Assembly: GCA_943704525.1 (NCBI GenBank)
Contig: CALSCQ010001420.1
Location: 1 to 59,329, forward strand
Reading direction: 5' to 3'
DNA length: 59,329 nt
Source of the DNA: Pigoraptor vietnamica
Lineage: Eukaryota; Opisthokonta; Filasterea
Numbering within the stretch: position 1 is the stretch's first letter; each line of letters begins with the position of its first letter. Of the stretch, positions 18,062 through 39,680 are shown piece by piece. Below the pieces are notes generated by a model. That model was given only the letters and a program-made list of their open reading frames with translations. It was not told the DNA's origin and did no database searches. The position numbers were made by a program, and so were the translations under genes.

Positions 18062-19878
18062 ATGGGGGAGAATGCGCCCATTTTCCGCGATATTGCGGCC
18101 GATGAGACGGAACAGGACGTCACGGAAATCGAAAGCCTGTGCATGAACTGCGAGGAGAAGGTTTGTGCGAACTATAGGGCACGCAATGTCTCGCTTGCAC
18201 TGTTCGAGGTCCTTGAGTCGTCTGCATCATGGAGCCATACTAACACGGGCGTCCTGCTTTCGCAGGGAGTTACTCGGCTGCTCCTCACCAAGATACCTTT
18301 CTTCAAGGAAGTCATCCTTATGGCATTCGAGTGCCCTCACTGCGGTTACAAGAACAACGAGGTGCAGTCGGGCGGCATGATCCAGGAGAAGGGCATCCGC
18401 GTCACTCTGCACGTCAAGTCCGCCGAAGATCTCAACCGCAATGTCGTCAAGTCGGACAGCGCGACCGTTAGCATCCCCGAGCTGGACTTTGAAATCCCGG
18501 CCAACACGCAGAAGGGCAAGTTGACCACTATTGAGGGCTTGCTGGAGCGTACGATCGCCGCTCTCGAGCAGGATCAGGACGCCCGTCAGGTTCGTGTCGT
18601 GTGACGCAACAATGTGAATAATCGTCTATCTCGGCTGATCTCGTGTGTGCACGCTGACCCTGAGATCTGTTGCAGGCTCACGAGCCAGAGAGTGCGGCCA
18701 AGATTGAGTCGTTCTTGTCGCGCATGCGGAGTTGCATGAATGGGGAGATGCCGTTCACTTTTATTGTGGACGACCCTTCGGGCAACAGCCACATCATGAA
18801 CCCATATCCGCTGCGCTTTGTCGATTTCCTTCATTTATGCTTGTTTCGTCTGCACGTTCCCTATTACGGTTTGGGTTGTTCCTGCATTGGCCTTAATTGT
18901 TCATCGAATTCACGTATGCGCCCAAGGAAGATCCCAACATGCATATTGTGCACTATGTCCGCACAGAGGAGCAGGACCATTTCCTGGGCCTGTACAAGGC
19001 CGAAGGAGGTGAGAGAATGTGTACAGTGTTTCCATCACATCGCTCGGTGGTTGTTTGTCCTTGAAAGGTGCTCACATTCTTGTTTGCCGCAGACGCGCCG
19101 GAGGTTGCGCCGGACGAGGTCGGGCGCGATGAAGTAATGATGATTCCGACGAACTGCTCGCGGTGCCACGCGCCCGCGCCGATGCTCATGAAGGTGCGGA
19201 TTGCGAAGAAGATGTGATTCAAAGTTGTGCTAGTGCAAGTGCTCAGCAGCTCCAACTTGCTGTTGTCGCTTGTTGTGAAATAGTGCTCAGCTGCTCCAGC
19301 TTGCTGTTGTCGCTTGTCGTGAAATAGTCTGAGCTGCTCCAACTTACTGTTGTCGCTCTGTGGGACAGGTCGTTGCGGTGCCCCACTTCAAGGACGTGAT
19401 TATCATGGCGGTGACGTGCGAGGCGTGCGGCCACAAGTCTAACGAAGTCAAGGCGAGCGGCGAGATTGCGGCGAAGGGCCAGATTCTCAAGCTGCACATC
19501 AAGGACTCGGACGACCTCTCGCGCGATGTGTTGAAGGTGCGGACATTGTCGACGCCTATCGCAACATGCATTCTATGCAGAGTTTATCTCTTATGAAAAT
19601 TGCCGTTCACAGAGTGACACGGCCAAACTCGTTCTGCCCGAGCTTGGTCTCGATATGGAGTCGGGATCACTGGGCAGCCGCTTCACGACTGTCGAAGGCC
19701 TTCTCACTCAGCTGAAGGAGGAGCTTACGAGCGCGAACCCGTTCGTTATTGGTGATTCCTCTGACCCGCAGCAGAAGGCGCGCATGGCTGACTTCATGAA
19801 TCAGCTCGACGAGGTATGCTTCGCACTCACTTTGCCGCGGTTACGCCTCTCGCCACTCTCTTGTCTCTCTCGTCTCTC

Positions 19879-19957
<79 letters not shown>

Positions 19958-20228
19958 TCTCGCTCTCTCTCTCTCGTTATCTTCGTCTTTTTGCGAACAC
20001 CCCCTGATGCTGTTGTATTTGCAGATCATCGAAGGAAAGAGGCCGGCGCTGTTCATCATTGATGACCCGGCGGGCAACAGTCACATCCAGAACCTCTATG
20101 CACCCGACCCGGACCCTTCGCTGGAGATTGAGGAATACGAACGGACGGAGGAGCAAAACGAGGAACTGGGCCTCACTCACATGGTTACGGAGGGCTATTC
20201 GGCCCATGGTTCGAACGGACCGTCCTAG
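18062..20228 (+). CDS. ZPR1: Zinc finger protein ZPR1
   Basis: Eight exons (18,062-18,160; 18,266-18,589; 18,676-18,803; 18,914-19,008; 19,093-19,193; 19,369-19,536; 19,613-19,813; 20,025-20,228) join in frame to 439 residues. ZPR1 is a duplicated protein and both halves are present: a zinc finger (CMNC ... [15 protein letters not shown], and CSRCHAP ... [15 protein letters not shown]) followed by an all-beta domain ending in [11 protein letters not shown] or [11 protein letters not shown]. In other eukaryotes ZPR1 is an essential partner of elongation factor eEF1A. Intron 3 is an AT-AC intron, intron 5 carries a 44-base tandem repeat and intron 7 a long CT run. The start at 18,062 is used because little conservation lies upstream; an in-frame ATG also occurs at 18,056. 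Confidence 0.93.
18804..18913 (+). other. U12-type AT-AC spliceosomal intron (ZPR1 intron 3)
   Basis: No GT-AG pair joins the flanking exons in frame. The only fit I found removes 110 bases that begin ATATCCGCT and end AC. The start matches the U12 donor consensus ATATCCTTT at seven of nine positions including ATATCC. GGCCTTAAT at 18,889-18,897 matches the U12 branch consensus TTCCTTAAY at seven of nine positions, 16-18 bases before the 3' end. Removal gives [19 protein letters not shown], the conserved ZPR1 sequence, and keeps the frame to the end of the gene. Confidence 0.85.
19241..19365 (+). repeat. 44-bp tandem repeat, about 2.8 copies, in ZPR1 intron 5
   Basis: Copies start at 19,241, 19,285 and 19,329. 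Copies 1 and 2 differ at only a few positions; the third diverges at its end, where it runs into the real acceptor at 19,367-19,368. Each copy brings its own pyrimidine-rich segment and AG dinucleotides. Confidence 0.85.
19881..19975 (+). repeat. (CT)n microsatellite in ZPR1 intron 7
   Basis: Nearly perfect CT dinucleotides for about 95 bases on the coding strand, with two interruptions near the right end. The run sits between the donor after 19,813 and the acceptor before 20,025 and supplies a very long pyrimidine tract. Confidence 0.95.
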
Positions 20229-20627
20229 ATCTCTGTTCAGAATGAAACAATAATAATGTTAAAGTGTAGGTGGGGGTTTCGAATGTGGCCTTTCGAGTTA
20301 CTCTGTTACACATGCGGGGTTTTACTCCGGATAAATTCTGCGTCCTCCCACTGCACACCAAAAAAAGCCGCCCGCAACACACGCAGCGCATTGGCACTGA
20401 TCACGACACAGCCACAAACACGCACATCTCTTTCTCTACATGACAGCGCTCCGTGCACGCCTCGTTTGGCTAAAATAGGCTCGCATTCGAGGCCTCGTCG
20501 GCAGGGCCTCGTTTCGCTGGCGAGTTTGTTGCGCTTATTTGCCGCATAGCTCGGGAGCAGGCGCTCACGGGGACCGTCGCGCGCCCCTCGCGACCTACGA
20601 AGCGGGGGAGTGCTTAGGACGGAAACT

Positions 20628-22007
20628 ATGGACACACACCAACTCTCCGTATTCGTGGGCACGTGGAATGTTGGCAACGCGCCGCCTCCCACCGACCTCG
20701 CGCCTTGGATTCCGACCGATGCGCACGACATCTATGCCGTGGGCGTGCAAGAGTGCCAGTATGAGCCGCGCCCGCCGTACGAATCGTGCGAAGATGACTG
20801 GTTCTCGACTATTCGCAATCATCTCGGCCCGAACTACAAGCTGCTCGAAAGCATCTCGATCACGCCGATGACGGTCGACACGTACAAGAACCCCGAAGAC
20901 TTTATGAAGGCGGTGGAGACTGGAAGGGCGCGGTCGGGCGAGATTCGGCTGTGCGTTTTTGCGCGTCTGGAAGTCGCGGGTCGCATTACCTCGGTCGAGA
21001 AGGCTCTGCGGACGACGGGTCGTCTGAACGGGCTCTCTGGGAACAAGGGAGGGCTCTGCGTGCACTTCCGCTACGGCGAGACAACGTTCGCTTTCATCAA
21101 CGCGCACCTCAATGCCCACGCGGAAAACCTCGAGCGACGAAACCAAGACGTTGTCAACATCAACGGGGGCCTGCGTGTCGGTCACGGCGAGTTCGACGCC
21201 ATCTCGCAAGCGACTTACTGTTTCTGGTTCGGCGATCTCAACTATCGCCTGGACTTTGAGGATGTCGAGCTGAGCAACCGACTGCTGGCCGCGGGCGATG
21301 CGGCAGCTCTCCGCGGGTACGATCAGCTCGTGCGAGAACAGGCGGGCGGTCGCGTCTTTGACGGCTTCTCCGAAGGCGAGATCCGCTTCTTGCCGACGTT
21401 CAAGGTGAAGAAGGGCAAGGGGACGTACGACCCGCAACGAGTGCCGAGCTACTGCGACCGCGTGCTCTACCGCGCACATCCGGGCTCGGTCGTCGCGCTC
21501 AAGTCGTATACGGCATGCGTTGACGTGCTAACCAGCGACCACAGGCCAGTGGCGGCGACGTTCGAGGTGCGGCCGATATACCGAGAGCTGTCGCCGTCCG
21601 CGCCTCCGTGCGCCATTACGGCACGCGTACGATTGTCGCAATTGCGGGTGCATTCAATGCGCCCGTCGTCGAAGCAGTTTACTCTGGACGGCACCTGCGA
21701 GCCTATTCTGCGCGCAGCCGTGCTCAAGAACGGCTCGACGACCGAAGCAGAGCTGAAGTCGCCAGCGGTGGACTGGGCGTGGGGAGAGCCGCTCGTTTTG
21801 TCGGTGCCGTTGCGGTCGGCGTCGCACGTCGGAGAGTCCCACGTGCTAATCGCGATGAGGGACGCCAAACGGCCGCGCAACTTGCTGGGCGAGGGCGTTC
21901 TGGCGCTCTCTGGCACAGACTCTCCGCGCGAGTTTGAAATTCCGTTGCGGCAGTACGGCCTTCCAGTGGCTGTGTTGGCGGGGACGATTCAGACCGAATG
22001 TGAATAG
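20628..22007 (+). CDS. Inositol polyphosphate 5-phosphatase with C-terminal C2-like domain
   Basis: A single exon of 459 residues. The signatures of the 5-phosphatase fold are in order: GTWNVGN near the start, a VGVQE-type strand, LSGNKGG near residue 140, INAHLNAH, the catalytic FGDLNYRL near residue 205, PSYCDRVL near 277 and TSDHRPV near 303. Such enzymes remove the 5-phosphate from inositol phosphates or phosphoinositides such as PI(4,5)P2 and PI(3,4,5)P3; which substrate is used here cannot be told. The last ~140 residues (from about AITARVRL) look like a C2 beta-sandwich, as follows the catalytic domain in SHIP-type enzymes. No SH2, SAC or RhoGAP domain is attached. Start 20,628 is the first ATG before the conserved domain. 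The absence of introns contrasts with its neighbours. Confidence 0.9.
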   Translation: MDTHQLSVFVGTWNVGNAPPPTDLAPWIPTDAHDIYAVGVQECQYEPRPPYESCEDDWFSTIRNHLGPNYKLLESISITPMTVDTYKNPEDFMKAVETGRARSGEIRLCVFARLEVAGRITSVEKALRTTGRLNGLSGNKGGLCVHFRYGETTFAFINAHLNAHAENLERRNQDVVNINGGLRVGHGEFDAISQATYCFWFGDLNYRLDFEDVELSNRLLAAGDAAALRGYDQLVREQAGGRVFDGFSEGEIRFLPTFKVKKGKGTYDPQRVPSYCDRVLYRAHPGSVVALKSYTACVDVLTSDHRPVAATFEVRPIYRELSPSAPPCAITARVRLSQLRVHSMRPSSKQFTLDGTCEPILRAAVLKNGSTTEAELKSPAVDWAWGEPLVLSVPLRSASHVGESHVLIAMRDAKRPRNLLGEGVLALSGTDSPREFEIPLRQYGLPVAVLAGTIQTECE

Positions 22008-22295
22008 CGTGCGCTTCGATCGGACGCAAGCGTTGCCGCTGCGCGCATTCGTCCGTCGACATTGCCGCTACGTGTGATCTACTCCCCTTCGTACTCTGGC
22101 GCACAATAGTTTGCGATGCGTCCCCTGTCTGTTTCTCCCGAGTGTTACCGCTAAAGGCTGGCAAACATTCTACAACAGCATGGGTCATGCAATGTGTCAG
22201 TTAGCTTGCTTTAGTCTGTAGTTTGCGTCTCTGATGCAACTTTGCAAGTGCGTGTTCCAAGCACACACTCAACGAGCCCTGCGAAGAGTACCCAA

Positions 22296-22726
22296 TTACG
22301 CCTCGCTCTCCGGTGGACGGCTTTGCCGTGCGCCGGCGCGCGCCAACGGGCTCACGAACATGCTGCTGTTGGGATCGACCTCGCCGAGAATGAGTTCGCG
22401 AAGGCCCGCCGACATCACGGCGTTTTCGTCGTAAACGGAATTTGTGATCACCGCTGAATTGAGCGAAAAAAAAGAAAAGATACGTGTGAGCACAATTGGG
22501 TTTCGAGCCAAAATCATGATCGTGACAACCAAAACATCGCCCTTCGCCAGGAATGCAATAACCCACTCGTTGAGTCTGCGCGTTTGTTGAGCCACGACAC
22601 TGGGCGGCTGCGAACGGGCGACAGCGGACTTCCAGGCGATGTTGTTGCGCTGGTGCCCTTGAGCCAATCGGACGCGCTCTTGGACAGGCCCATCGTACCG
22701 TCGTCAGCAGCGCTGCACGCGGGCAT
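22296..22726 (-). CDS. Possible small protein of unknown family
   Basis: I do not recognise this one. From the ATG at 22,726 two short introns (22,698-22,658, 41 bases; a second of ~31 bases ending at the pyrimidine-rich acceptor near 22,450) would join three pieces into about 120 residues ending at 22,296. The middle piece reads QPPSVVAQQTRRLNEWVIAF followed by a hydrophobic stretch ending ARNPIVLT, and the last contains VYDENAVMSAGLRELILGEV. The model rests on splice consensus and an amphipathic or hydrophobic pattern only; the gene could equally be absent and the region be the shared 3' flank of the phosphatase and the Delta-like gene. Confidence 0.25.
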
Positions 22727-22893
22727 GGCAAAAAGCTTGAATTACAACCGAATTGAAAGAGATTCATGCCAACGGACGACGGCACCAAAACATCATCGCG
22801 CACAGGTTTCGGCCGGTGAGATTGAAAGTTCACGTTGCATGCCATTAGATCGGAGCTGGACACTTAAAAATGGCCGCGCAAAGTGCACAAACA

Positions 22894-25800
22894 CTAGTCG
22901 CACCTCTTTTGCCTGCGAATGACCAGGAAGGCAACCGCACCGGCGAGTGCCGCGACGCCCACAACCGTACCCGTCGCGATGCCCGCAACGGCACCCGTCG
23001 AGAGCGAGCTAGACGAAGAAGATTGCGCGTTCGAAGAGCCGAAGCCTACGTTTCCGAATGAAGAGGGCGGAGGTCAATGCAAGGCACCAGTCGCAGAGCC
23101 AATACACATCGGACAACCAACGAATAGACTGGCGCATTCGGCGTACATACCGACAATGGCACATGTCGGACAGGCTTTGCAGCCGCCCGTTCCGCCGGGT
23201 CCGTCGTCGCACAGCATGTCACCGCATGCGCAAGTGTGCTCACAGCGATGTCCATAGTGCCCTGGCAAACAAGTGAGGCAAGTGCCGTTGCCCTTGACAC
23301 CGTCGAAGCAACCGCCTCCCTCGCACGCGCACGTTTTGTTACAGTACGCTCCGTAGCGACCGCTCTCGCATCCCGTGCACGCACCTGCGAAACCACAATA
23401 GTCACACACATCGCCGCATGCCTTTGTACGCCGGTGACAGGTCTCCACGACATTCATAACAGCGACTGGATGCTCACCAGAGCCGTTCACGCCGTCGTCG
23501 CACCTGTCGCACTCTGCCGGACATTCTGCGAGTTCATCCATGAAAAATTAGGCAGTGTCGAAACAACTCTTACCACGCGAAAAAAGGAGTCCGCGCAATA
23601 CCCACGGTTTTGGCACTGCGGCCCAAATCGCCCCTTCGGGCATGTTACACACGCGCCCGTCCCATTAACACCACCAGAACACGTGCCGCCGTTGCAGTTG
23701 CACTTCACGCAACGAGCGCCATAAGCGTCCGCGCTACAGGCCGCGCACGTTCCGGTCGCGTTGACGCCGTCTCGGCAACCGATGCAGCTCTCGGCACACA
23801 CGATGCACGTTGTTCCGTAGTGGCCGCGTGCGCAGTCATCGCAGCCCGATCCCACGTAGTTGCCGGAACACACGCATGCTCCTTGGCTATCGCACGTGCC
23901 GCGCCCGTTGCAGGTGATCAGGGCGTCACAAAAGTTCGCACATTTGGCGCCCAAATATCCCGGCGCGCAAATGCACCGTCCGCTTCCAGAAATGCCGTCG
24001 TCGCAAGTGGCACCGTTGCGACAATCACACGCGGACGCGCACGCCGGACCATACCGTCCCGGGGCGCACCGCGAGCATGCGGTTCCGGTCCATCCCGCCG
24101 CACACGTGCACGCGCCCGTCGAGGCGTCGCACGTCCCATGGCCACTGCAGCTGGTCGCTGCAACGCAATGCGTTCCGCAATCGCTTCCGTAGTAGTCAGC
24201 GGCACAAGTGCAGGCGCCCGACCCAAGACGGCCGTCACTGCACGTGGCGCCGTTCAAGCATGCGCACTTGGCTGCGCACCCGGCACCGTAGTAGCCGGGT
24301 TGACACGCCGCGCACCCCTCGCCCACAAAGTTGCCCGTGCAGGCGCAAACACCGTTGGAGTCGCAGGTGCCATGTCCGCCGCACGTACTGGACGCCTCGC
24401 AGCGCGTCTGGCATTTCGTCCCAAAGTAGTTTGCAGTGCACGCGCACGCGCCCGAGCCGCCAATGCCGTCAGAGCACTTCGCCCCGTTCAGGCAGCTGCA
24501 GCTCGCGCAGGACGCGCCAAAGTACCCATCCGCGCAGCCAGTGCAGCTCGTCCCACTCCAGCCAGCCGCGCATACGCACGTACCAGTACCGGTGTCGCAC
24601 GTCCCGTGGCCACTGCACGTTGACGCGGCAGTGCAGCCAATAGCACAGGTCGCGCCATAATAATTTGCTGCGCACGTGCACTTGCCAGTTCCAGAAACGC
24701 CCTCGTTGCACGTCGCCCCGTTCAGGCAGTTGCACGCGGCGCATGTAGGCCCGTACCGACCCGTCGTGCATGCGTCACACCGCGCGCCCGTCCACCCCGA
24801 GCTGCACACGCACGCCCCATTCGAGTCGCACATCCCGTGACCGCTGCACGTCGTCGACGCAAGGCAATACGTCCCACAGTTCGCCCCGAAGTAATTCGCC
24901 GCGCACGTGCATGCGCCGGACCCTTCCACACCATCGTTGCACGTGCCTCCATTGAGGCAGTTGCAAGACGCGCACGTCGGCCCATAGAAGCCCGCTTTGC
25001 ACGACGCGCATGAGGACCCAGTCGCTCCCGAACCGCACGTGCATGCCCCCGTCCCACTGTCGCACGTGCCCCGCCCGTTACAAGTCGATGACGCGAGACA
25101 ATACGTCCCGCAGCTCGTGCCATAGTAGTTGCTCGCGCACGTGCAGGCCCCGCTCCCACCCACGCCGTCGCTGCACGTCCCTCCGTTCAGGCAGTTGCAG
25201 GCCGTGCATGACGACCCGTAGAACCCCGCCTTGCACGTCGCACACGTCGCTCCGCTCGCACTCGACGAACAAACGCACGCACCCGACGTCGAGTCGCACG
25301 TTCCGCGCCCGTTGCACGTCGACGCCGCGACGCAGTTGGTCGCGCACGCCGGTCCGTAGTAGTTGGTGCTGCAAACACACGCGCCAGCCGTGTTGCACGT
25401 GCCGTGGCCGTTGCATGTTGAGGACGCGAGGCAATATGTCGCACAGTTCGTCCCGAAGTAGTTGCTCACGCACGTGCACGCGCCCGTTCCTCCGAGGCCG
25501 TCGCTGCACGTCCCGCCGTTCTGACAATCGCACGGGGAACAGCTTTGGCCGTAGAAGCCTGCTTTGCACGTAGCGCAGTTCGCATCGGCTGCGCCGGGCG
25601 AGCATATGCAAGCGCCCGTTGCGCCATTACAATTGCCTCGCCCACTGCATGTCGTCGACGCGAGACAGAACGTACCGCAATCGGCACCATAATAGTTCGC
25701 GGTGCACGTGCCGCACGATCCAGTGCCGGAGACTCCGTCGTTGCAGACGGCGCCGTTGAGGCACACGCATGCCGAGCAGGACGCACCCCAGTAGCCAGGC

Positions 25801-28800
25801 GAACAGGCCTCGCACTTCGTTCCTGACGCACCGGCCTTGCACACGCACGCGCCAGAGGCACCACAGGTCCCGCGACCGTTGCACGTCGTGGAGGGGTCGC
25901 AGAAGGTGGCGCAGTTCGGCCCAAAGTACTTGTCATCGCACACGCACGAGCCGCTCGATCTGTCGCAAGAGCCGTGGCCGCTGCAAGTCGTGGAGGGCTG
26001 GCAGAACGCCTCGCACTTGGCACCGTAGAAGTTGGGCGCACATGTGCACGCGCCCGTGCCCGCAGAGCCGTCACTGCACGTCCCGCCGTTGAGACACGCA
26101 CATGGCGTGCAAGATGAACCGTAGAACTTTGCGGCGCAAGTGCTGCAGGTGCTCCCTGTCCAACCGACGTTGCAGTCACACGCTCCCGTCGTCCAGTCAC
26201 ACGCACCACGCCCACCGCACGTTGAGGACGCGAGACAATAAGTCCCGCAGGTGGCGCCGTAGTAATTCGTGGCGCATGCGCACGCCCCGGTCCCCGATAC
26301 GCCCTCGTTGCACGTCGCCCCGTTCAGGCAGTTGCACGCGGTGCACGTAGGCCCGTACCGACCCGTCGTGCATGCGTCGCACCGCGAGCCCGTCCACCCC
26401 GAGCTGCACACGCACGCCCCATTCGTGTCGCACGTCCCGTGACCGCTGCACGTCGTCGACGCAAGGCAGTACGTCCCACAGTTCGCCCCAAAATAGTTCG
26501 CCGCGCACGTGCACGCGCCGTTTCCACCAACGCCATCGCTGCAAGTGCCTCCGTTTAGACAATTGCATGCAGCACACGCCGGCCCATAGTAGCCGCTGAG
26601 GCACGACGCACAGGTATCCCCCGTCGCTCCTGCGCTGCATTTGCACGCGCCCGTTCCGCTGTCGCAGGTGCCCCGCCCGTTACACGTGGACGACGCAAGG
26701 CAATACGTTCCACAGTTCCCTCCATAGTAGTTGCTCGCGCAAGTGCACGCCCCGCTCCCACCCACGCCGTCGCTGCACGTCCCTCCGTTCAGGCAGTTGC
26801 AGGCCGTGCATGACGACCCGTAGAACCCCGCCTTGCACGTCGCACACGTCGCTCCGTTGGCGCCTGCCGAACACAAGCAGACGCCTGACGTCGAGTCGCA
26901 CGTTCCGCGCCCGTTGCACGTCGACGTCGCGACGCAGTTGGTCGCGCACGCCGGTCCGAAGTAGTTCGTGGTGCAAACACACGCGCCGGCCGTATTGCAC
27001 GTGCCGTGGCCGTTGCATGTTGAGGACGCGAGGCAGTACGTCGCACAGTTGGGCCCGAAGTAATTGGCGGCGCAAGTGCATGCACCTGTGCCATCGACAC
27101 CTTCGCTGCACGTGGCCCCGTTCAGACAGTTGCAGGACGCGCATGACGCCCCATAGCGACCGGGCGCACAGGCGGAGCAACTTGCTCCAGACCATGCGGC
27201 ATTGCACACGCAGGCCCCCGTGTTGGCATCGCAAGTGCCGCGTCCGCTGCATGTGGTCGTGGCAAGGCAATACGTCGCGCAGCGCTGGCCGTAGTATCCG
27301 TCCGCACACGTGCACGCACCCGTGCCCGCAATACCTTGACTACAGGTGCCACCGTTGAGACAGGCGCACGCCGTGCACGAGGGACCATAGAATCCGGGGG
27401 CGCACTCGCCGCAACTAGGCCCAGCCCAGCCCCCGCTGCAAACGCAAGCGCCCGTCGCAGGGTCGCATGTGCCGTGCCCGCTACACGTGGTCGCAGCCAC
27501 GCACTTGGTCGCGCACAGGGGTCCGTAGTACGTGGCCGCACACGTGCAAGAGCCCGTGCCGCCTGTCCCCTCGCTGCACGTCGCACCATTGAGACAGCCG
27601 CACGGCGCGCACGACGGTCCGTAGTGCGCCGCGACGCACGCGTCACAGCTTGCACCCGTCCATCCGTCCGCGCACTGACACGTCCCTGTAGAGGGGTCAC
27701 ATACACCGTGGCCGCTGCAAGTTGTCGCCGCAATGCAATACGTCGCGCAGGAGGCGCCGTAGTAGTTGGCCGCGCACGCGCAGGCTCCCGTCCCGGAAAC
27801 GCCCTCGTTGCACGTCGCCCCGTTCAGGCAGTTGCACGCAGCGCACGTAGGCCCGTACCGACCCGTCGTGCATGCGTCGCACCGCGAGCCCGTCCACCCC
27901 GAGCTGCACACGCACGCCCCATTCGAGTCGCACATCCCGTGACCGCTGCACGTCGTCGACGCAAGGCAATACGTCCCACAGTTCGCCCCGAAGTAATTCG
28001 CCGCGCACGTGCATGCGCCGGACCCTTCCACACCATCGTTGCACGTGCCTCCATTGAGACAGTTGCAAGACGTGCACGTCGGCCCATAGAAGCCCGCTTT
28101 GCACGACGCGCATGAGGACCCAGTCGCTCCCGAACCGCACGTGCATGCCCCCGTCCCACTGTCGCAGGTGCCCCGCCCGTTACATGTCGACGACGCGAGA
28201 CAATACGCCCCGCAGCTCGTGCCATAGTAGTTGCTCGCGCACGTGCAGGCCCCGCTCCCACCCACGCCGTCGCTGCACGTCCCTCCGTTCAGGCAGTTGC
28301 ACGCCGTGCATGACGACCCGTAGAACCCCGCCTTGCACGTCGCACACGTCGCTCCGCTCGCACTCGACGAACAAACGCACGCACCCGACGTCGAGTCGCA
28401 CGTTCCGCGCCCGTTGCACGTCGACGCCGCGACGCAGTTGGTCGCGCACGCCGGTCCGTAGTAGTTGGTGCTGCAAACACACGCGCCAGCCGTGTTGCAC
28501 GTGCCGTGGCCGTTGCATGTTGAGGACGCGAGGCAATATGTCGCACAGTTCGTCCCGAAGTAGTTGCTCGNNNNNNNNNNNNNNNNNNNNNNNNNNNNNN
28601 NNNNNNNNNNNNNNNNNNNNNNNNNNNNNNNNNNNNNNNNNNNNNNNNNNNNNNNNNNNNNNNNNNCGGTCCGTAGTAGTTGGTGCTGCAAACACACGCG
28701 CCAGCCGTGTTGCACGTGCCGTGGCCGTTGCATGTTGAGGACGCGAGGCAATATGTCGCACAGTTCGTCCCGAAGTAGTTGCTCGCGCACGTGCACGCGC

Positions 28801-31800
28801 CCGTTCCTCCGAGGCCGTCGCTGCACGTCCCGCCGTTCTGACAATTACATGGAGCGCACGACGCGCCGTAATACCCCGGCTTGCACGTGGCGCACGCCGT
28901 GCCGGTGGCGCCCGCGCTGCAAGTGCACGTCCCCGTCGCCGGATTGCACGTGCCACGACCGTTGCACGTCGTCGACGCGAGACAGAACGTACCGCAATCG
29001 GCACCATAATAGTTGGCTGGGCACGAGCCGCAAGACCCCGTACCGCCGACTCCGTCGTTGCAGACTGCGCCGTTCAGGCAGTTGCACGTTGTGCATGACG
29101 CGCCCCAATACCCGGCGAGGCAGGAGGCGCACGTGGTACCCGTCGCCCCAGCATTGCAAGAGCAAGCCCCCGTCGCATCGCACGTGCCGCGCCCGTTACA
29201 CGTTGTGGAGCCGAGGCAGAAAGTGCCGCAGTTGCTTCCAAAGTAATTGGCGTCGCACACGCACGCACCCGCAGTACTGCAAGTGCCGTGTCCGCCGCAG
29301 GTGGTCGAGGCCTGGCAAAACGTTGCACACGTCGGCCCATTGTAGTTGGCCGCGCACGTGCACGTGCCCGTCCCGCTGAGCCCTTGGCTGCACGTTGCGC
29401 CGTTCAAGCAATTGCACGGCGCACACGTCGACCCGTAGTAGCCGGCGGCGCAGCCATCGCAGCGGCTACCCGACCAACCAGTACTGCAGACGCAAGCGCC
29501 CGTGGAAGGGTCGCACGTCCCGTGCGCACTGCACGTGGACGATGCAAGGCAGTATGTCGCGCAGCTTGCGCCAAAGTAGTTGGCTGCGCACGTGCACGCT
29601 CCGTTTCCGCCGATGCCCTGGTTGCAGGTGCCGCCGTTCAAGCACGTGCACGCCGTGCACGTCGGCCCGTAATACCCAGGGGCGCACGAGGTGCAGCCGC
29701 TCCCAGTCCAACCCGTCGCGCACACGCATGCGCCGGTCGAGGGGTCGCATGCGCCATGTCCGTTGCACGTGGACGATGCGACGCAGTTTGTGGCGCACGT
29801 CGTTCCAAAGTAGTTGGCCGCACACGAGCACGCTCCGTTGCCTCCGAGACCCTGGTTGCACGTTGCGCCGTTGAGGCAACTGCACTGCGCGCACGTCGAC
29901 CCATAGTAACCCGACGCGCACGAGCTGCAGCTCGAGCCCGTCCATCCGGTCGCACAAACACAGGCCCCGGTCGACGGTTCGCACGTGCCGTGTCCGCTAC
30001 ACGTCGTTGACGCAAGGCAATAGGTCGCACACGACGTTCCAAAGTAATTGGCCGCACACGCGCACGCGCCGTTTCCGGACAGACTTTCGCTGCACGTCGC
30101 GCCGTTGAGACAGTTGCACTGGGTGCACGCGGCTCCGTAGTAACCCGGCGCGCATGCGTTGCAGCTCGTCCCAGTCCAGCCCGCCGCACAGCTGCATGTC
30201 CCCGAACCCGTGCACGTCCCGTGCCCGCTGCACGTTGACGAGGCGACGCAGTTGGTCGCACACTTCGGCCCAAAGTAGTTGGCGGCGCAGGTGCAGGCGC
30301 CAGACCCCGACACACTGTCTGCGCAAGTTGCGCCGTTGAGACAGTCGCACGCGGTGCACGTCGCACCATAATACCCGGCAACGCAAGTCGCGCAACTGGC
30401 ACCCATGGCCCCGGTGTTACACGTGCACGCGCCCGTTGACGGATTGCACGTCCCCCGCGCGTTGCACGTAGTTGCTGCGACGCAATACGTCCCGCAACTC
30501 GTGCCATAGTAATTGGCCGCGCACGTGCACGCGCCTGTACCGCTCAGCCCCTCGTTGCACGTCCCGCCGTTGAGGCAGTTGCAGGCGGCGCATGACGGTC
30601 CGTAGTAGCCCGAAGCACACGAGTTGCAGCTCGCACCCGTCCATCCAGATGCGCACGAGCAAGCGCCTGTGCCAAAGACGCACGTGCCGTGTCCGCTGCA
30701 CGTGGTGGCTGCGACGCAGTTCGTGGCGCATGTAGTTCCGTAGTAGTTGGCCGCGCAAGTACAGGCGCCCGATCCGCTTGATCCTTCAGCACACGTCGCT
30801 CCGTTCAAGCACGCACATTGCGTACACGCTGATCCATAGTAGCCCGCGGCGCACGTGTTGCAGCTCGTTCCCGTCCAGCCCGCTGAGCAGCTGCACGCGC
30901 CGGTGGAAGGGTTGCATGTGCCATGCCCACTGCACGTGGCCGACGCGAGGCAGTACGTCGCGCACGAAGTGCCATAGTAGTTGGTCGCACAAGTGCACGC
31001 GCCGTTGCCGCTGTTGCCCTGGTTGCACGTCGCGCCATTGAGGCAGTTGCACGCCGCGCACGTCGATCCGTAGTATCCAGACGCGCACGTGTTGCAGTTT
31101 GCGCCCGTCCAGCCCGTTGAGCAACTACAAGCGCCGGTGGAAGGGTTGCACGTGCCATGCCCACTGCACGTGGCCGACGCGAGGCAGTACGTCGCGCACG
31201 AAGTGCCATAGTAGTTGGTCGCACAAGTGCACGCGCCGTTGCCGCTGTTGCCCTGGCTGCACGTTGCGCCGTTGAGGCAGTTGCACGCCGCGCACGTAGA
31301 CCCGTAGTATCCCGACGCGCATGTGTTGCAGTTTGTGCCCGTCCAGCCGGTCGAACATGAGCAAAGGCCCGTCTGAGAGTCACAAGTGCCGTGCCCGCTG
31401 CACGTTGTCGACGCTTGGCAGAACGTCGCGCAGGTGGTCCCGTAATAGTTGGTCGCGCAAGCGCAGGCACCCGACCCACTCGTCCCCTGGTTGCACGTCG
31501 CGCCGTTGTTACAATTGCACTGCGTACACGACGCTCCCCAATAACCCGACGCGCAAGTGTTGCAAGACGTCCCCGACCATCCCGTGGAGCAGCTGCAAGC
31601 GCCGGTCGAGTCGCATGTTCCGTGTCCGTTGCAGGTATTCGACGCCAGGCAGTACGTTGCGCACGACGATCCATAGTAGTTGGCGCTGCACGAACACGCA
31701 CCGGCGGACGTGCACGTGCCGTGGCCGTTGCACGAGGACGAGGCGAGGCAATAGACGGAGCAGTCAGACCCGTAGTAGTAGGTATTGCAGGAAATGGAGA

Positions 31801-32610
31801 ATGTCACAGTCACCGAATTGCTTCCGCTGCCGCCGGTCAGAGAGAGCGTCGTCGCGCTGCTGGGGAGCGGTGGGGTGTACGAGAGGGTACCCGAGCCGCC
31901 GAGGTATCCGTCAAAGCCGTAGTCGTCATCCCACGCGTCGATTTTCAGTTGAAGCTGTTTGGTGTTCCGTCGGGTAAAGGGACGTTAATACGAACACGTT
32001 GTAGGTGACTGAGAACTGACAATGCGCGGAAGCCCGTGTTATTCTGCAACGCACACACAGAGAACACACACACAAACACACGTGGTGAACACGCAACACA
32101 AACACATACGTCTTCTTATTATAATTTGACTCTGAGACGCACTCACTTGGAAAGGCGTCGTGAAAGTCAAACTGCACGTGTTGTCGAACGAGAACACGCC
32201 GCCGCCGCGGATTGACGTGTACGACGTGCTGCAGGAGTACGTCTCCGATGTCTTGCGGCCGTTCGTCATGACAATGTACTGGAAGTACGGGTCGCAGCAC
32301 GAGACCGAATTGTAATAGAAATAGCCGCTCGTGACCGTCACAGTTACGGTGCCGCCCTGGCCAGCCTGCGGCCGCCGAAGTGGAAGATCGGCTTCACATT
32401 AGCAACCAAAACGAAACAAGAAAAAAAAGGAACAAAACATCGTCCGCCAGACGCCACAGTGAGACGTATGCCATGTACCTGTGCCGTGTTGAATGCAGCG
32501 AAGAATGCGGCCGCAGCGAGGACACACGCGGCCGCTATCCGCGGTCTGAGCAAGGAGCTGTGTACCGTACCGCACGCGGCGGCGCCCCTCGCGCGCCACT
32601 TCGGCCCCAT
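22894..32610 (-). CDS. Giant type I membrane protein with MNNL-like and tandem DSL/EGF-like repeats
   Basis: Six exons: 32,610-32,479; 32,365-32,147; 31,954-23,606; 23,525-23,478; 23,384-23,088; 23,045-22,894. If the 96-base gap is closed as described for that feature, the product has about 2,993 residues. Exon 1 encodes a hydrophobic signal peptide. Residues ~45-170 contain SGYFYYNSVSCCDPYFQY and LQLKIDAWDDD, resembling the MNNL/C2 region of Notch ligands (ECDTYF..., LLVEAWD). Then come about 37 units of the form C-x8-C-x3-C-x11-C with NYYG and GHGTC, followed by an EGF/laminin-like half (CNCLNGATC..G.SGTGACTC). The first half keeps the DSL cysteine spacing, with one extra pair. The last exon has a Ser-rich stalk, one membrane helix and the tail RRQKRCD. 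A surface adhesion or signalling role is inferred. Confidence 0.85.
24694..28570 (-). repeat. Near-identical duplicated block inside the Delta-like gene (offset 3,102 bp)
   Basis: About 775 bases starting at 24,694 recur almost unchanged from 27,796, an offset of 3,102 bases, which is exactly 1,034 codons. Part of the same block occurs a third time near 26,290-26,560. The near-identity at DNA level, including synonymous positions, points to recent in-frame duplication within the array. Confidence 0.8.
28571..28666. other. Assembly gap (96 N) with identical flanks
   Basis: The ~119 bases left of the gap (from 28,452) are repeated exactly right of it (from 28,667), a shift of 215. The coding frame differs between the two sides by exactly the amount that 215 bases would cause. 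Overlapping the flanks therefore restores one continuous reading frame. Confidence 0.8.
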
Positions 32611-33013
32611 TCCGCCGGATAGATACCGTTCTCCTCAGCGTCTCTGATTTTCGCGATCCTTTCTTTGTGTTGGGCCTTAGCGCGTGTTAGGCATGCTGGG
32701 TGTTGCCGTTGAAAAACGGTGTGCAGAACAAGCCGGGTGGGGTGACATGGTTAGCATAATTAGATTATTTAAACTTTTCCATGTCCTTTCCTGGCCAGTT
32801 GGCTCCGATGTATCCTATTTTGTACAATTCGGAAACGGGGTCACGTGCCATCACGAGATTCAATCACGTGACACCCGCTTGTCCACACCAAAACAATGGC
32901 TGTTTTCTCGGCAACGCGCGTCGCCCTCAAGAGGAAGGAAGAAAAACTCTCCTCGTCGGCTTTCATCATCGCCCGTCGACTTCGGAACGACTGCTGTGTT
33001 CGCGGCAACAAAT
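32611..33013. promoter_or_regulatory. Divergent promoter region with two CACGTG E-boxes
   Basis: This is the 403-base gap between the starts of the Delta-like gene and the ankyrin-DnaJ gene. GGTCACGTGCCAT at 32,839-32,851 and TCACGTGA at 32,864-32,871 are palindromic E-box-type sites 25 bases apart. The first 13 bases recur exactly in the CapA/RhoGEF promoter. Confidence 0.45.
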
Positions 33014-34669
33014 ATGGGCGGCGCGGACTGGTTTGCGCTCGCGCGTGCGGGCGACGTCGACGGCGTGCAAAAGGTCCTCGCGAAAAAGTCGTCGTTCTGG
33101 AAGAGCACGGTGCGCGCGACAATCAAGGGGCGCCTCCCGGACGTGAATGACGCCGAGAACGACACGGGCGATACGGCGCTCCACATTGCAGCCAGCACCG
33201 GCTGCGTCCCGTTGATTGAGGCATTGCTGGCGGCGGAGGCCAACCCTTCGCAGCGAAACGCACATGGGGAAACACCGATGCACGTAGCCGCCCGCTGCAA
33301 CCGGCCCGACGTCGTGCGCGTGTTGGCTAAGCACGGTCGCATGTTGTCCGAGGACAGGGTCACTTGCGGTGGCGAGCAGTACACGTGCCTGCACCTCGCG
33401 GCGGAGCACGGCCACGGCGGCGCGGTGGAGGCGCTTCTCGGGTGCGGCGCCAACGTCGATGCACAGACGGTGCCTGGAAAGAAGACCGCGCTTCACATCG
33501 CGGCAGCGGCGGGGAAGGCTGAGATTGTGAGCTCGCTGCTTGTCCAGGGCGCCTCGCCGACAGACAAGGACGGCGCCGGTCGCGTGCCCAAAGATTGCGC
33601 GAAAGATGATGGCACGCGCGCCGTATTCGACCGACAAGAGCAGGCTGAGCAGCAGAAACAGAAGCGGGCTGCCGGCACCAGCGGAGCGCCACCGCCATCG
33701 CAAGCGCCTCCGCAGCCCAAGCAGCCCCCGAAAGTCTCGGGTCCCGACTACTACGAGCTGCTCAAGGTGCCGCGCAACGTGTCACCCGGCACGTTGAAGA
33801 AGTCGTTCCGGCGCTTGGCCGTCCAGTACCATCCGGACAAGAATCCCGACGCGAAGGAACTCTTCCAGCAGATCAACAACGCCTTTAAGATCCTCTCGAA
33901 CCCCGACACGCGCGCCGTGTACGACGCGCAGGGTGCCGATGCGGCGGAGGAGGCCGTGCAAGAGGGGCTGCGACAGAAGCAGACGATGGTCCAGGAAGAT
34001 CTCGACGACATCTTTGGCGACCTTGCCAAGGGCGTCGGGAATGCGACCGTGGAGCCGACGTCGGACGACGACCTCCTCGACCGCGTCGCGGAGCAGCTCA
34101 GCGGCCTCGGTGGTGCCGACGCACTCAAGCGTGCACGCACTGCGAGCCAGGAGCGCGAGTTCGACGACCACGAGACGCCCGTCGTGGCAGTGAAGGACTT
34201 GGACGCGGCGATGAATGGCCTGGAAGCGGAATTGGACGGAATAGACCTCAATGCCTCGTCGTTGTCGTCCGCGCCGACGTCTGCACCTGCGGGCGGACAG
34301 AAGCCGCAGAGCGACCGCCGCGTGTCGTTCCATCCGGAGCGCATATTTAATGTCGACAGCGCACCCGCGGCAGCCCCGTCTGCGACTACGACCGACAAGT
34401 CCCCGCGCCCGCCGTCCTTCCATCCCGAGCGCATCTTCGGTCTCGGCGGCGACACGGAACCCGCTGTTTCCTCTGCGCCTGCGAGCACCACGTCGTCCGC
34501 GCGGCCCCTCTCCTTCCACCCGGAGCGCTTCTTCGGCTTCGACGCGTCTGCCACGGCCCCTTCGCCCGCGCCTGCCCCGGCAGCCTCGGCGCCACCAGCG
34601 GAACCGGCTGCGATCAGCGTGAACGATATTGACAAGTTGTTCAGCGACTTTGTCGTGCCGGAGGCGTGA
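33014..34669 (+). CDS. Ankyrin-repeat and DnaJ-domain protein
   Basis: One exon, 551 residues. Four ankyrin-type repeats fill residues ~50-200 (GDTALHIAASTG, GETPMHVAARCN, YTCLHLAAEHG, KTALHIAAAAG). A Gln/Pro-rich linker leads to a J domain at ~245-310, from DYYELLKVPRNVSPGTLKKS through the catalytic YHPDKNPDAKE to NAFKILSNPDTRAVYDAQG, with the HPD tripeptide intact. It should therefore stimulate an Hsp70 ATPase. Ankyrin repeats would select a client or partner, which is inference. The C-terminal third is low complexity and carries SFHPERIF or SFHPERFF three times, each followed by a short Gly/Asp-rich gap. The ATG at 33,014 is chosen because the in-frame upstream stretch has no conserved features. 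Confidence 0.88.
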   Translation: MGGADWFALARAGDVDGVQKVLAKKSSFWKSTVRATIKGRLPDVNDAENDTGDTALHIAASTGCVPLIEALLAAEANPSQRNAHGETPMHVAARCNRPDVVRVLAKHGRMLSEDRVTCGGEQYTCLHLAAEHGHGGAVEALLGCGANVDAQTVPGKKTALHIAAAAGKAEIVSSLLVQGASPTDKDGAGRVPKDCAKDDGTRAVFDRQEQAEQQKQKRAAGTSGAPPPSQAPPQPKQPPKVSGPDYYELLKVPRNVSPGTLKKSFRRLAVQYHPDKNPDAKELFQQINNAFKILSNPDTRAVYDAQGADAAEEAVQEGLRQKQTMVQEDLDDIFGDLAKGVGNATVEPTSDDDLLDRVAEQLSGLGGADALKRARTASQEREFDDHETPVVAVKDLDAAMNGLEAELDGIDLNASSLSSAPTSAPAGGQKPQSDRRVSFHPERIFNVDSAPAAAPSATTTDKSPRPPSFHPERIFGLGGDTEPAVSSAPASTTSSARPLSFHPERFFGFDASATAPSPAPAPAASAPPAEPAAISVNDIDKLFSDFVVPEA

Positions 34670-37888: not shown

Positions 37889-39286
37889 TTATAAGGCCAG
37901 GTTGAAGAAGCCCTCCCTCTCCGTCGCAGTCAAATCGAGGCTGCGCGGCGATGCCTCGCGCAACTTGCGCTCGAACCACTCTGCGTCGCTACCCGTCGCA
38001 ATGGATGTCGTCCCCAAGTCGGAAATTTTCAGCGCAACAAGGGTCGCCGATGCAAGCTCCACTTCGCTGCCACCCGCTGGCCCCGCTTTCAAACGCACGA
38101 CGCACCCCATCCCAATGTCACTCCTATGTCTCGCAAACTGTTCGAAATCGTCGGCGTCCGGCAGCACCCTTGCAGCGGCACCGTAGTCGTCCACCGCACC
38201 CCCGAGCCCATACAGCACGAGGCCCGTCGATTGCGCCCCGTGCAGTGTGCTCTCGTCCCCGTCGCTTGAACCGTCATCGGAAACACTGTCGGAATCGGAC
38301 GGCGGGAGGTCGTCCGAAGGGTCATTGCCGCCAGGATCCGCGACATTGCGTGCGCACTTTACAATTTCGACGCCGAGAATGTGGTGTGAGGAGTGGCCGT
38401 GAACGATGGTGGCACCCGCCGCCACCATTTCGCGCGCGGCGTCGCGAAACTCGTCCGGCATTTCTTCCACAAAGTTGTCGCCCCAGTGCATGCTCACGAC
38501 CACCATCGCGCAGCCGGGCGTGCGAAGACACGCCGCAATGTCACGGCGGATGCGGTCGAGACGATGCGTCCTGTAGCGGTTGGGGTTTCCTCCCGCTCCG
38601 CGCCGCAATTCCGCGTGCTGAAAGTCAAAGTAGTTGATGCCCGGCGTTGCCTCGCCGCACGCCCACTCGGCAAAATGGTCGGCATAACTCAACACTGCGA
38701 CCTTACGCGGCTCGCCGCCGACGCGCACGGTTACAAACGCCGGCGCAGATGCCAAGAACGCGTCCTTCCCGTAACCCGCATGCGCGACGCCGAGAGACTT
38801 CAGCAGCGAGAGCGTCTTCATCGCACCAACCTCGCCGTCGTCCAGAATGTGATTATTCGCCAACGAGCAAAACCACTTCGCTCCGTCAAACACCTGTTTG
38901 ACGCACGCGGCATCCACGCGGTGTCGTTGGCTCCATTCATCGCCATCCACTGCAAATGGAAAGGCACTCAGACAACAACCCTTCCGTTGCACGAACAAAC
39001 CGAATGACTTACATGGGCGCTCGCTCACGGCCCCTTCAAAGTTGCACAAGACCACGTCACAGGATCCAAATTCCCGTTGCAAATTCTCCGCGAACACAGC
39101 ACAGTGCCCCCGCTTTTGCGCGGCTTCGTGCGCGGCCAGCATGGCCCTGAAGTGCGCGTGCCGCTTCGCCGACTCGACCGCTTTTTTCGAGGCATCTCGC
39201 GCACCTGGCGACCGCCCGCGCTCTCCCGCCACCGCAAGTGACAGGAGTCTTGCGAGCATTACATCGCCGAGAAGAAACAGCGCCAT
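37889..39286 (-). CDS. CapA-type (PGA_cap) metallophosphoesterase-fold protein
   Basis: One exon, 465 residues from the ATG at 39,286. Motifs of the CapA/PgsA family appear in order: FLLGDVMLAR at the start, VLCNFEGAVS near residue 83, LANNHILDDG near 142, VVSMHWGDNF near 247 and IVHGHSSHHILGVE near 280. These supply the Asp, Asn and His residues of the calcineurin-like metal site. In bacteria the family makes or anchors poly-gamma-glutamate; the role in eukaryotes is unclear, so I call the fold and not the reaction. An acidic Ser/Asp-rich insertion (about 300-330) separates the last metal motif from the LVLYGLGG segment. Intronless and of bacterial-type family, it could be an old transfer, though its base composition matches its neighbours. 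Confidence 0.85.
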   Translation of the reverse strand: MALFLLGDVMLARLLSLAVAGERGRSPGARDASKKAVESAKRHAHFRAMLAAHEAAQKRGHCAVFAENLQREFGSCDVVLCNFEGAVSERPCKSFGLFVQRKGCCLSAFPFAVDGDEWSQRHRVDAACVKQVFDGAKWFCSLANNHILDDGEVGAMKTLSLLKSLGVAHAGYGKDAFLASAPAFVTVRVGGEPRKVAVLSYADHFAEWACGEATPGINYFDFQHAELRRGAGGNPNRYRTHRLDRIRRDIAACLRTPGCAMVVVSMHWGDNFVEEMPDEFRDAAREMVAAGATIVHGHSSHHILGVEIVKCARNVADPGGNDPSDDLPPSDSDSVSDDGSSDGDESTLHGAQSTGLVLYGLGGAVDDYGAAARVLPDADDFEQFARHRSDIGMGCVVRLKAGPAGGSEVELASATLVALKISDLGTTSIATGSDAEWFERKLREASPRSLDLTATEREGFFNLAL

Positions 39287-39680
39287 GTTTTGGCAAAGTC
39301 TAGTGCGCGTGACTTTGAGCTGAGATCGTTTGACACTAAAAACCCTTCTGAAAACGAAGTGGAGCAGGTGGCACGTGGACAGTGATCGGTCACGTGCCAT
39401 TTCCTTTTTTGGCGCCGCACGGCATTTCAAAAAATGCATGAAACGCACACAGTCTGGGCTTGCACGGACCGCACGAGGCCAACAACCTTTTAGCCGCTGT
39501 CGTGTCTGCGCATGCCGATCACCCTCTCTCATAAGGAGGGTTCACAATTGCACGGGGTGCTTTGAGCGGCCGTTTTCAACGGAACGCCCGACGCCCGCAG
39601 TCCCGTGACCGACCTCCGCGGGCGGAAAAATCACCGTGCGGACGTCGTCGTTGCCGTTGGGCAGGACGCTGTGAGCTGTC
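39287..39680. promoter_or_regulatory. Divergent promoter of the CapA-like and RhoGEF genes with two E-boxes
   Basis: CACGTG occurs at 39,372-39,377 and inside GGTCACGTGCCAT at 39,388-39,400. The 13-base site is identical to that at 32,839-32,851 in another divergent promoter. Confidence 0.45.

What the first reader, a model, noticed from the sequence alone, without database searches (positions are those of the whole stretch)
22894..32610. Notch-ligand-like architecture (signal peptide, MNNL-like, DSL-like repeats, TM, short tail) outside typical animal context
Each repeat begins C-x8-C-x3-C-x11-C with NYYG after the first Cys and GHGTC before the last, which is the DSL spacing (CDENYYGEGC...GHYTC...GWTG). 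The only change is an extra Cys pair within the x11 loop and the next loop. The N-terminal globular region has CCDPYFQY and LQLKIDAWD where Delta/Jagged have ECDTYF and LLVEAWD. In animals a single DSL domain occurs per ligand; here the unit is repeated about 37 times and fused to EGF/laminin-like halves. Either the DSL fold arose from such arrays, or this is strong convergence.
Basis: partly seen in the sequence, partly recalled or inferred. Interest (0 to 1): 0.78.

Follow-up and report, generated by a model that had tools for sequence, protein, structure and literature searches.

The report
Giant Notch-ligand-like protist surface protein
A single-celled relative of animals carries a very long cell-surface protein whose tip and repeats resemble the part of animal Delta/Jagged proteins that touches Notch, but the repeats keep two extra cysteines, so it looks like a relative of Notch ligands and not a true one.

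Summary
The observation largely holds. The minus-strand gene (about 32610-22296) encodes a signal-peptide-like start, a ~130-residue N-domain, a repeat stalk, a TM helix and, by my exon model, a 105-residue tail (not short). All 36 complete units have DSL spacing plus two cysteines; none has six. Pfam DSL passes its cut-off in 35 of 38 window matches; 0 of 10 Cys-fixed shuffles match. Against PDB sequences the best-scoring unit prefers Notch-ligand DSL domains; the first and a weak unit do not clearly. Notch-contact arginines are absent. Pfam MNNL does not hit the N-domain, but N-domain plus first unit finds Delta, DLL1 and Jagged-1 first; without the DSL part the evidence is weak.

The genome is a unicellular holozoan, probably filasterean. 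Two other genes carry MNNL domains above Pfam's cut-off; one appears to end in a tyrosine kinase. A Notch-like LNR-TM-ankyrin gene shows no EGFs.

Best reading: a kinase-less adhesion/recognition protein sharing ancestry with Notch ligands, whose units suit a proposed "DSL lost one disulphide" origin. New variant of a known kind; not filed as a DSL ligand.

The parts
22296..32610 (-). whole gene model (ATG 32610, stop 22296-22298)
   Evidence: exons by reading frame and GT-AG sites chosen by eye; intron 2 supported by paralogues; no transcript data
32479..32610 (-). exon 1, 44 residues, hydrophobic, signal-peptide-like
   Evidence: sequence; no signal-peptide predictor run
32147..32365 (-). 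exon 2, first half of the N-terminal C2/MNNL-like domain (CCDPYF, C-x20-C)
   Evidence: paralogues on C871, C816, C355
31955..32146 (-). intron 2, 192 nt, phase 0, in frame with two TAA
   Evidence: C871 and C816 read as having one intron here, C355 ends after the donor side; an alternative with a microexon was considered
31790..31954 (-). second half of the N-domain (LQLKIDAWD ... FSIS)
31661..31789 (-). first DSL-like unit, joined directly to the N-domain as DSL is in Notch ligands; Pfam DSL 28.5 bits on its own, 20.8-21.8 inside longer pieces (cut-off 24.2)
28667..31954 (-). exon holding the N-domain's second half and 14 complete 8-Cys units alternating with short EGF modules
   Evidence: Pfam DSL 217, EGF_TEN 220, EGF_laminin 212 bits in total over 1095 residues
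28571..28666 (.). assembly gap (96 N); the 119 nt before it recur directly after it; open frame differs across it
23841..28570 (-). second part of the array, 22 complete 8-Cys units
   Evidence: holds an 865-nt block 95.6% identical to another (24604-25467 and 27706-28569)
22904..23004 (-). single transmembrane helix (GAVAGIATGTVVGVAALAGAVAFLVI) and RRQK
   Evidence: hydropathy scan
22567..22712 (-). cytoplasmic tail, exon with SPLSPVRSRPVSW
   Evidence: open frame and splice sites
22296..22453 (-). last coding exon, NSVYDENAVMSAGLRELILGEVDPNSSMF ... stop

Best explanation
It is a type I single-pass surface protein of a unicellular holozoan (probably a filasterean). A small beta-sandwich cap, related to the C2/MNNL domain of Notch ligands, is held away from the membrane on a stalk of alternating laminin-type and short EGF modules, and is anchored by one TM helix with a ~105-residue tail without a kinase. 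The unit that follows the cap is homologous to the DSL domain but keeps two more cysteines, probably a fourth disulphide; tandem duplication has made at least 36 such units. It most likely works as a contact-adhesion or recognition receptor (cell to cell, or predator to prey): the cap and first units bind a surface or another EGF protein, the stalk gives reach, the tail signals or anchors. It is a kinase-less relative of EGF receptor tyrosine kinases of the same genome that carry MNNL or window-type caps. Shown: exon-level architecture, profile and PDB matches, paralogues. Inferred: splicing, fold of the cap, homology of cap and MNNL, disulphides, binding and function.
For: DSL: 35 of 38 window matches over the cut-off alone; 0 of 10 Cys-fixed shuffles match; the unit at 26379-26507 (chosen because it has the best DSL score) searched against PDB sequences has Notch-ligand chains as the ten best of 42, over its full length. 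Cap plus first unit on the final exon model: Delta 9.4e-5, DLL1 2.3e-4, Jagged-1 0.0018 are the first three of 15 chains, 11 of the 15 are Notch ligands, and the Jagged-1 match runs collinearly over chain residues 40-198. hhalign of the four-paralogue profile with animal MNNL plus DSL start: probability 90%, E 1.4e-6 for this one comparison, 113 columns; C2 part alone: score 22.9 against a maximum of 20.6 in 200 column shuffles; C-x20-C and AWD-x46-C equal Jagged-1, and 5 and 3 of 1000 shuffles reach the C2-only Jagged-1 score under two nulls. Foldseek's first 22 rows are all Notch ligands. Same genome: MNNL at 41.6 and 35.9 bits (cut-off 22.5) on C117 and C830, each followed by a YYG 8-Cys unit. 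On C117 a 469-residue frame with the last EGF, TM and tyrosine kinase lies 4-5 kb downstream on the same strand, with EGF exons between (linkage inferred). C816 has the window-type cap, EGFs, an FN3-like stretch, TM and kinase exons in order. No Pfam match in three minus frames of 19000-23499.
Against: MNNL profile does not hit this protein or C871 at E<=10. Without the DSL start the cap evidence is weak: hhalign probability 10%, no signal against Jagged-2 (348 of 1000 shuffles) or DLL4 (160 of 1000), none against the MNNL genes of the same genome (probability 0.2%; with the junction 68%, over 19 junction columns only); a PDB search with the four-paralogue profile found one unrelated chain and no Notch ligand. 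TM-scores are low, the geometric aligner listed no Notch ligand among 50 rows, and the paralogue domain alone did not fold (pLDDT 42) or match. The preference for DSL depends on the unit: for the first unit SREC and Jagged-1 tie for first (26.7 and 26.6 bits; 11 of 18 chains Notch ligands); for a weak unit (25008-25139) a mastigoneme EGF leads, Delta is fourth at E 0.11 and 6 of 17 are Notch ligands; for longer pieces Tie2 or SREC lead. Whole-chain scores add other EGFs of the chain; the best single DSL match there is 30.0 bits of those printed. EGF_TEN and EGF_laminin total scores equal DSL's. The first unit falls below the DSL cut-off inside longer pieces. The units at the DSL position of C830 (11.5 bits), C871 and C117 (no hit) do not pass DSL. 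The scan also missed the short EGF exons there. Function is untested.
Confidence: 0.55

Rival explanations
1. The protein is an ordinary EGF/laminin-EGF stalk (MEGF/SREC, teneurin or Tie type). The DSL score is cross-talk, because DSL itself is an EGF derivative, and the cap is some other beta-sandwich.
For: All 36 units have eight cysteines; EGF_TEN and EGF_laminin score as much in total as DSL; Tie2 has a unit with exactly this spacing and Tie2 is the best PDB match of a 79-residue repeat; SREC leads or ties for the first unit and for a consensus piece; no MNNL hit.
Against: The Tie2 piece (15.8 bits) fails the DSL cut-off and an SREC piece has no DSL hit, and 59 of 62 DSL matches elsewhere in the genome are not flagged over the cut-off; the best-scoring unit prefers DSL domains in the PDB; the first unit joins the cap as DSL joins MNNL.
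Confidence: 0.3
2. It is a true Delta: a ligand that activates the Notch-like receptor of the same genome.
For: Overall order signal peptide, C2-like cap, DSL-like unit, EGFs, TM; a Notch-like LNR-TM-ankyrin gene and a CSL match (52 bits) exist in the genome.
Against: The residues of Jagged-1 named as the putative Notch-binding face (F199, R201, R203, F207; PMC3415683, passages) are not kept: no Arg at the 201 or 203 place and no Phe at the 207 place in any of 36 units; the 199 place is aromatic in 26 of 36. No EGF family was found in the scanned C1027:6000-12500, and EGFs are where animal ligands bind Notch.
Confidence: 0.07
3. It is a ligand, co-receptor or decoy for the capped EGF receptor tyrosine kinases of the same cell or a neighbour, using cap-to-cap or cap-to-EGF binding.
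For: Same cap type on a gene with TM and kinase exons (C816) and on the kinase-less window gene.
Against: No binding data; caps of the window type and MNNL type are not detectably alike within this genome.
Confidence: 0.15
4. The DSL likeness is convergence on a cysteine frame in a recently expanded array.
For: Recent block duplication (95.6% over 865 nt) and loops rich in Gly, Ser, Thr and Ala.
Against: Shuffles that keep the cysteines lose the match (0 of 10), and cap and YYG unit co-occur in the order of Notch ligands in several genes.
Confidence: 0.1

Closest known systems
Jagged-1 / Delta N-terminal region (C2/MNNL-DSL-EGF)
   Same: order cap, YYG unit, EGFs, TM; C-x20-C and AWD-x46-C spacing as in Jagged-1; DSL profile passed
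   Different: eight, not six, cysteines; at least 36 units; no MNNL profile hit; Notch-face arginines absent
MNNL-DSL protein of the choanoflagellate S. dolichothecata (PMC6040629, passages)
   Same: MNNL plus DSL in a unicellular relative of animals
   Different: that protein has both profiles and no TM on its partial contig; here DSL is tandem and MNNL is below detection
'Delta-like' receptor tyrosine kinase of Capsaspora with two DSL domains (as told in PMC4810162, passages; the original Suga 2013 paper is not held)
   Same: DSL-scoring EGF units on a holozoan surface receptor
   Different: the window protein has no kinase found and has a C2-like cap; in this genome C117 appears to join a real MNNL to such a kinase
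Jagged-1 exon-6 unit (end of EGF1 plus EGF2; PMC2725086, passages)
   Same: EGF with one extra disulphide on its N-terminal side, which the 8-Cys units here would also have if they pair like EGFs (inference)
   Different: the units here have DSL spacing; pairing not tested
Tie2 EGF-like unit (PDB 2gy5)
   Same: identical 8-Cys spacing
   Different: fails the DSL cut-off; its N-terminal domains were not compared

Membership tests
Notch ligands (Delta/Serrate/Lag-2) | MNNL domain by Pfam PF07657 | tested here: not met
   no hit at E<=10 for any of the splice models of this protein nor in six frames of its contig; two other genes do hit
Notch ligands (Delta/Serrate/Lag-2) | C2-type beta-sandwich at the N-terminus | tested here: inconclusive
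   model pLDDT about 60, 22 first Foldseek rows Notch ligands but TM 0.16-0.28; VIA rows are other sandwiches; second model failed
Notch ligands (Delta/Serrate/Lag-2) | DSL domain by Pfam PF01414 | tested here: met
   35 of 38 window matches over the cut-off alone; the first unit 28.5 bits on its own, 24.7 in six frames, but 20.8-21.8 inside longer pieces
Notch ligands (Delta/Serrate/Lag-2) | six cysteines in DSL | tested here: not met
   36 of 36 units have eight
Notch ligands (Delta/Serrate/Lag-2) | disulphides between consecutive cysteines | not testable with these tools
   model coordinates not given; the pattern is from PMC3415683 (passages)
Notch ligands (Delta/Serrate/Lag-2) | Notch-face residues F199, R201, R203, F207 | tested here: not met
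   no Arg at 201 or 203 and no Phe at 207 in 36 units; aromatic at 199 in 26 of 36
Notch ligands (Delta/Serrate/Lag-2) | EGF repeats then one TM helix | tested here: met
   (hydropathy only for the TM)
Notch ligands (Delta/Serrate/Lag-2) | binds and activates a Notch receptor | not testable with these tools
   no experiment
laminin-type EGF arrays | EGF_laminin PF00053 | tested here: met
   212 bits over the 1095-residue piece, 27.2 on one 79-residue repeat
capped EGF receptor tyrosine kinases of this genome | tyrosine kinase domain after the TM | tested here: not met
   no Pfam match at E<=0.01 in three minus frames of 19000-23499; no row on this contig, where 134 of 718 candidates were scored

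The most novel reading that the evidence does not exclude
The 8-Cys unit is a surviving form of the ancestor of DSL. DSL arose when one EGF-array unit (last loop of one EGF plus the next EGF), fused to a C2 cap on a receptor of a unicellular holozoan, lost one disulphide. Notch ligands are then kinase-less descendants of C2-capped EGF receptors that, in this genome, still sit on tyrosine kinases, beside a Notch-like receptor that has not yet gained EGF repeats.
Probability: 0.27. Interest if true: 0.85.

Novelty: new variant of a known kind. Interest (0 to 1): 0.6.

Why it matters
Where the DSL and MNNL domains came from is open: PMC2770060 (passages) found both absent outside animals in 2009 and could not clarify their origin; PMC2725086 (passages) asked whether DSL and the Jagged-1 exon-6 unit share an ancestor with loss of one disulphide in DSL, and found no strong evidence in the genomes then at hand. 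This genome offers material for that question: units with DSL spacing and DSL score that keep an extra cysteine pair, next to C2-like caps, two MNNL domains over Pfam's cut-off (one apparently on a tyrosine kinase) and a Notch-like receptor without EGFs. The order of events can be tested by disulphide mapping and by trees across filastereans. In the held library I found no paper that puts MNNL on a tyrosine kinase; what I saw are the listings (8 of 8; 20 of 44; 20 of 56; 1 of 1; 20 of 39; 6 of 6; 2 of 2), and passages of the papers named. Subscription papers and preprints are not held.

Tried and rejected
Considered and dropped: (1) a microexon NNTGFRALS between two short introns; the paralogues read as one intron there. 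(2) The gap-flank duplicate as a real extra repeat: cannot be decided from the assembly. (3) Photosynthetic alga: no chlorophyll-binding match. (4) Choanoflagellate: T-box genes argue for a filasterean or ichthyosporean; that choanoflagellates lack T-box is recalled. The species was not identified; an rRNA search gave no answer. (5) PDB search with the four-paralogue N-domain profile: no Notch ligand, one unrelated chain at E 0.18. (6) The MNNL-DSL region of C830 against PDB sequences: one Delta-like chain at E 5.9 only, although Pfam MNNL hits it. (7) Second structure job (C871 domain alone): pLDDT 41.8, no Notch ligand in the 50 Foldseek rows shown: uninformative. (8) VIA second look: no Notch ligand in 50 rows. 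(9) Integrin beta as a further taxon marker: cap reached. (10) C1171 with LNR matches is a Stealth protein, not Notch.

Searches with the first unit, a weak unit and a consensus piece are less specific, so I lowered the best explanation from 0.6 to 0.55, the true-Delta rival from 0.08 to 0.07, the novel case from 0.3 to 0.27 and the interest from 0.62 to 0.6, and raised the plain-EGF rival from 0.25 to 0.3. One search had used the dropped microexon model; one search repeats it with the final model. The LNR count was corrected to 13 matches, 11 over the cut-off.
Full report
What is there. The finding lies on the minus strand. The gene starts at 32610 and, on my exon model, stops at 22296-22298. 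Exon 1 (44 residues) is hydrophobic and looks like a signal peptide (by eye). Exon 2 and the start of the next exon encode a domain of about 130 residues, split by a 192-nt phase-0 intron; paralogues on C871 and C816 read the same way, and C355 has the first exon before its contig ends. Then come a cysteine-rich array (17% Cys), further EGF exons, one TM helix and a tail. A 96-N gap at 28571-28666 has the same 119 nt directly before and after it, and the open frame differs across it; part of the array is a recent duplication (865 nt at 95.6%); so the unit number is uncertain. The tail was called short; two more exons with fitting phases give 105 residues, without transcript proof.

The repeat. 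36 complete units occur in the readable sequence and all have eight cysteines with one spacing, C-x8-C-x3-C-x5-C-x5-C-(x5 or x6)-C-x-C-x8-C. Without the fourth and sixth cysteine this is the DSL spacing of Jagged-1 as printed. The array alternates a laminin-type EGF (eight Cys) and a short EGF (six Cys); the DSL register takes the last loop of the short EGF plus the first six cysteines of the next laminin-type EGF. In 5 places two units overlap, so that one loop is both the end of one unit and the start of the next. This agrees with the view, told in PMC3415683 (passages), that the C1-C2 and C5-C6 loops of DSL superimpose and that DSL may come from truncated tandem EGFs. If the units pair like EGFs (inference), the pairs left after removing the fourth-sixth pair are consecutive, as in DSL.

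Is the DSL match real? PF01414 gives 100 listed matches in the genome, 38 of them on the window contig, of which 35 pass the 24.2-bit cut-off alone and 1 more with its neighbours; of the other 62, 3 are flagged over the cut-off. The five of those others that I read out also have eight cysteines. For the best-scoring unit DSL leads with 40.8 bits, before EGF_2 34.7, teneurin EGF 34.3 and laminin 15.9; for the first unit DSL has 28.5, EGF_2 26.7; for a 79-residue repeat 36.3 against 31.7 and 27.2 for laminin. In the laminin register teneurin EGF (36.3) and EGF_2 (34.3) lead and DSL falls to 25.1. Summed over 1095 residues EGF_TEN 220, DSL 217 and EGF_laminin 212 are level. Inside longer pieces the first unit scores 21.8 or 20.8, below the cut-off. 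Controls: 0 of 10 Cys-fixed shuffles match DSL; a Tie2 piece with identical spacing scores 15.8 and an SREC piece has no DSL hit. PDB sequences: the unit with the best DSL score matches 42 chains at E<=1 and the ten best are Notch ligands, full length (whole-chain scores include other EGFs of the chain). Other units are less specific: first unit, SREC 26.7 and Jagged-1 26.6 bits, 11 of 18 chains Notch ligands; a weak unit, mastigoneme EGF first, Delta fourth at E 0.11, 6 of 17 Notch ligands; a 79-residue repeat and a 67-residue consensus, Tie2 or SREC first with Notch ligands after them.

The genome. G000 has 32.5 Mb in 1395 contigs. It holds T-box matches (11, of which 5 of 150 bits or more), PK_Tyr_Ser-Thr kinases (150 matches listed, 7 of 274 bits or more; this model also rings in 8 of 14 bacterial and archaeal controls), cadherin repeats on two contigs (47 matches) and no chlorophyll-binding match. 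From these I infer a unicellular holozoan, most likely a filasterean; the species is not known to me. MNNL passes its cut-off in two genes, C117 and C830 (41.6 and 35.9 bits on spliced pieces), each followed by a YYG unit with eight cysteines that does not pass DSL (C830 11.5 bits; C117 no hit). On C117 EGF exons follow and a 469-residue frame joins the last EGF, a TM and a tyrosine kinase with HRDLAARN; that all this is one gene is inferred. C816 has the window-type cap, EGFs, an FN3-like stretch (17.1 bits, below its cut-off), TM and kinase exons (35.7 bits) in order. C1027 has a signal-peptide-like start, 13 LNR matches (11 over the cut-off), a NOD-like stretch (17.1 bits, cut-off 20), a TM and ankyrin repeats, with no EGF family found in 6000-12500. 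A CSL match is present (52 bits).

How it may work. Shown: exon-level architecture and kinship of the units. Inferred: the cap is the distal recognition end, since the C2 domain of Notch ligands has lipid- and receptor-binding properties (PMC5538765, start of abstract); the stalk gives reach; the tail replaces the kinase of the sister receptors. The Jagged-1 face residues named in PMC3415683 are not kept, and the Notch-like receptor shows no EGF repeats, so canonical Delta-Notch signalling is unlikely. Adhesion or recognition is my best reading (0.55).

Against the literature. PMC2770060 (passages): MNNL and DSL absent outside Metazoa in 2009; cnidarian genes with 1-11 DSL domains, perhaps misassembled. 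PMC6040629 (passages): MNNL plus DSL in one choanoflagellate, one of the two in four others, DSL in two ichthyosporeans. PMC4810162 (passages): a Capsaspora kinase with two DSL domains. PMC11594159 (passages): a Ministeria kinase proposed as ancestor of DLL, JAG and NOTCH on BLAST grounds. PMC9492541 (passages): three filasterean genomes, the word Notch not in the main text. PMC2725086 (passages): DSL may have lost one disulphide. So Delta-like parts in unicellular holozoans are known. New here, as far as these searches show, are the tandem 8-Cys DSL-scoring units behind a C2-like cap and an MNNL domain apparently on a tyrosine kinase. I do not file the protein as a DSL ligand, because the MNNL profile, the six cysteines and the face residues were tested and not met.

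Noticed in passing
G000 contig C1027, about 7000-11000 minus (L034): A Notch-like gene: signal-peptide-like start, 13 LNR matches (11 over the cut-off), NOD-like stretch (17.1 bits, cut-off 20), TM, ankyrin repeats, no EGF family found in 6000-12500.
   Followed up: partly
G000 contig C117, 6054-12307 plus (L032, L047): MNNL domain (41.6 bits) followed on the same strand by EGF exons and a 469-residue frame with EGF, TM and tyrosine kinase; one gene by inference.
   Followed up: partly
G000 contig C816 (L016): Window-type N-domain, EGFs, FN3-like stretch, TM and kinase exons in order.
   Followed up: partly
G000 contig C1171 (L035): Stealth-type protein (CR1-CR4) with two LNR matches.
   Followed up: no
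window 37892-39532 minus: 547-residue ORF with PGA_cap, a bacterial capsule-synthesis family, 135 bits, in a eukaryote contig.
   Followed up: no
window 48498-52082 plus: ORF with RanBP-type zinc fingers and a weak Nup retrotransposon-binding motif, nucleoporin-like.
   Followed up: no
window 32684-34666 plus and 20610-22004 plus: Neighbours: an ankyrin-DnaJ protein and an Exo_endo_phos2 (inositol-phosphatase-type) protein.
   Followed up: no
window 24604-25467 and 27706-28569: 865-nt blocks of the array 95.6% identical, a sign of recent duplication or of an assembly error near the gap.
   Followed up: no
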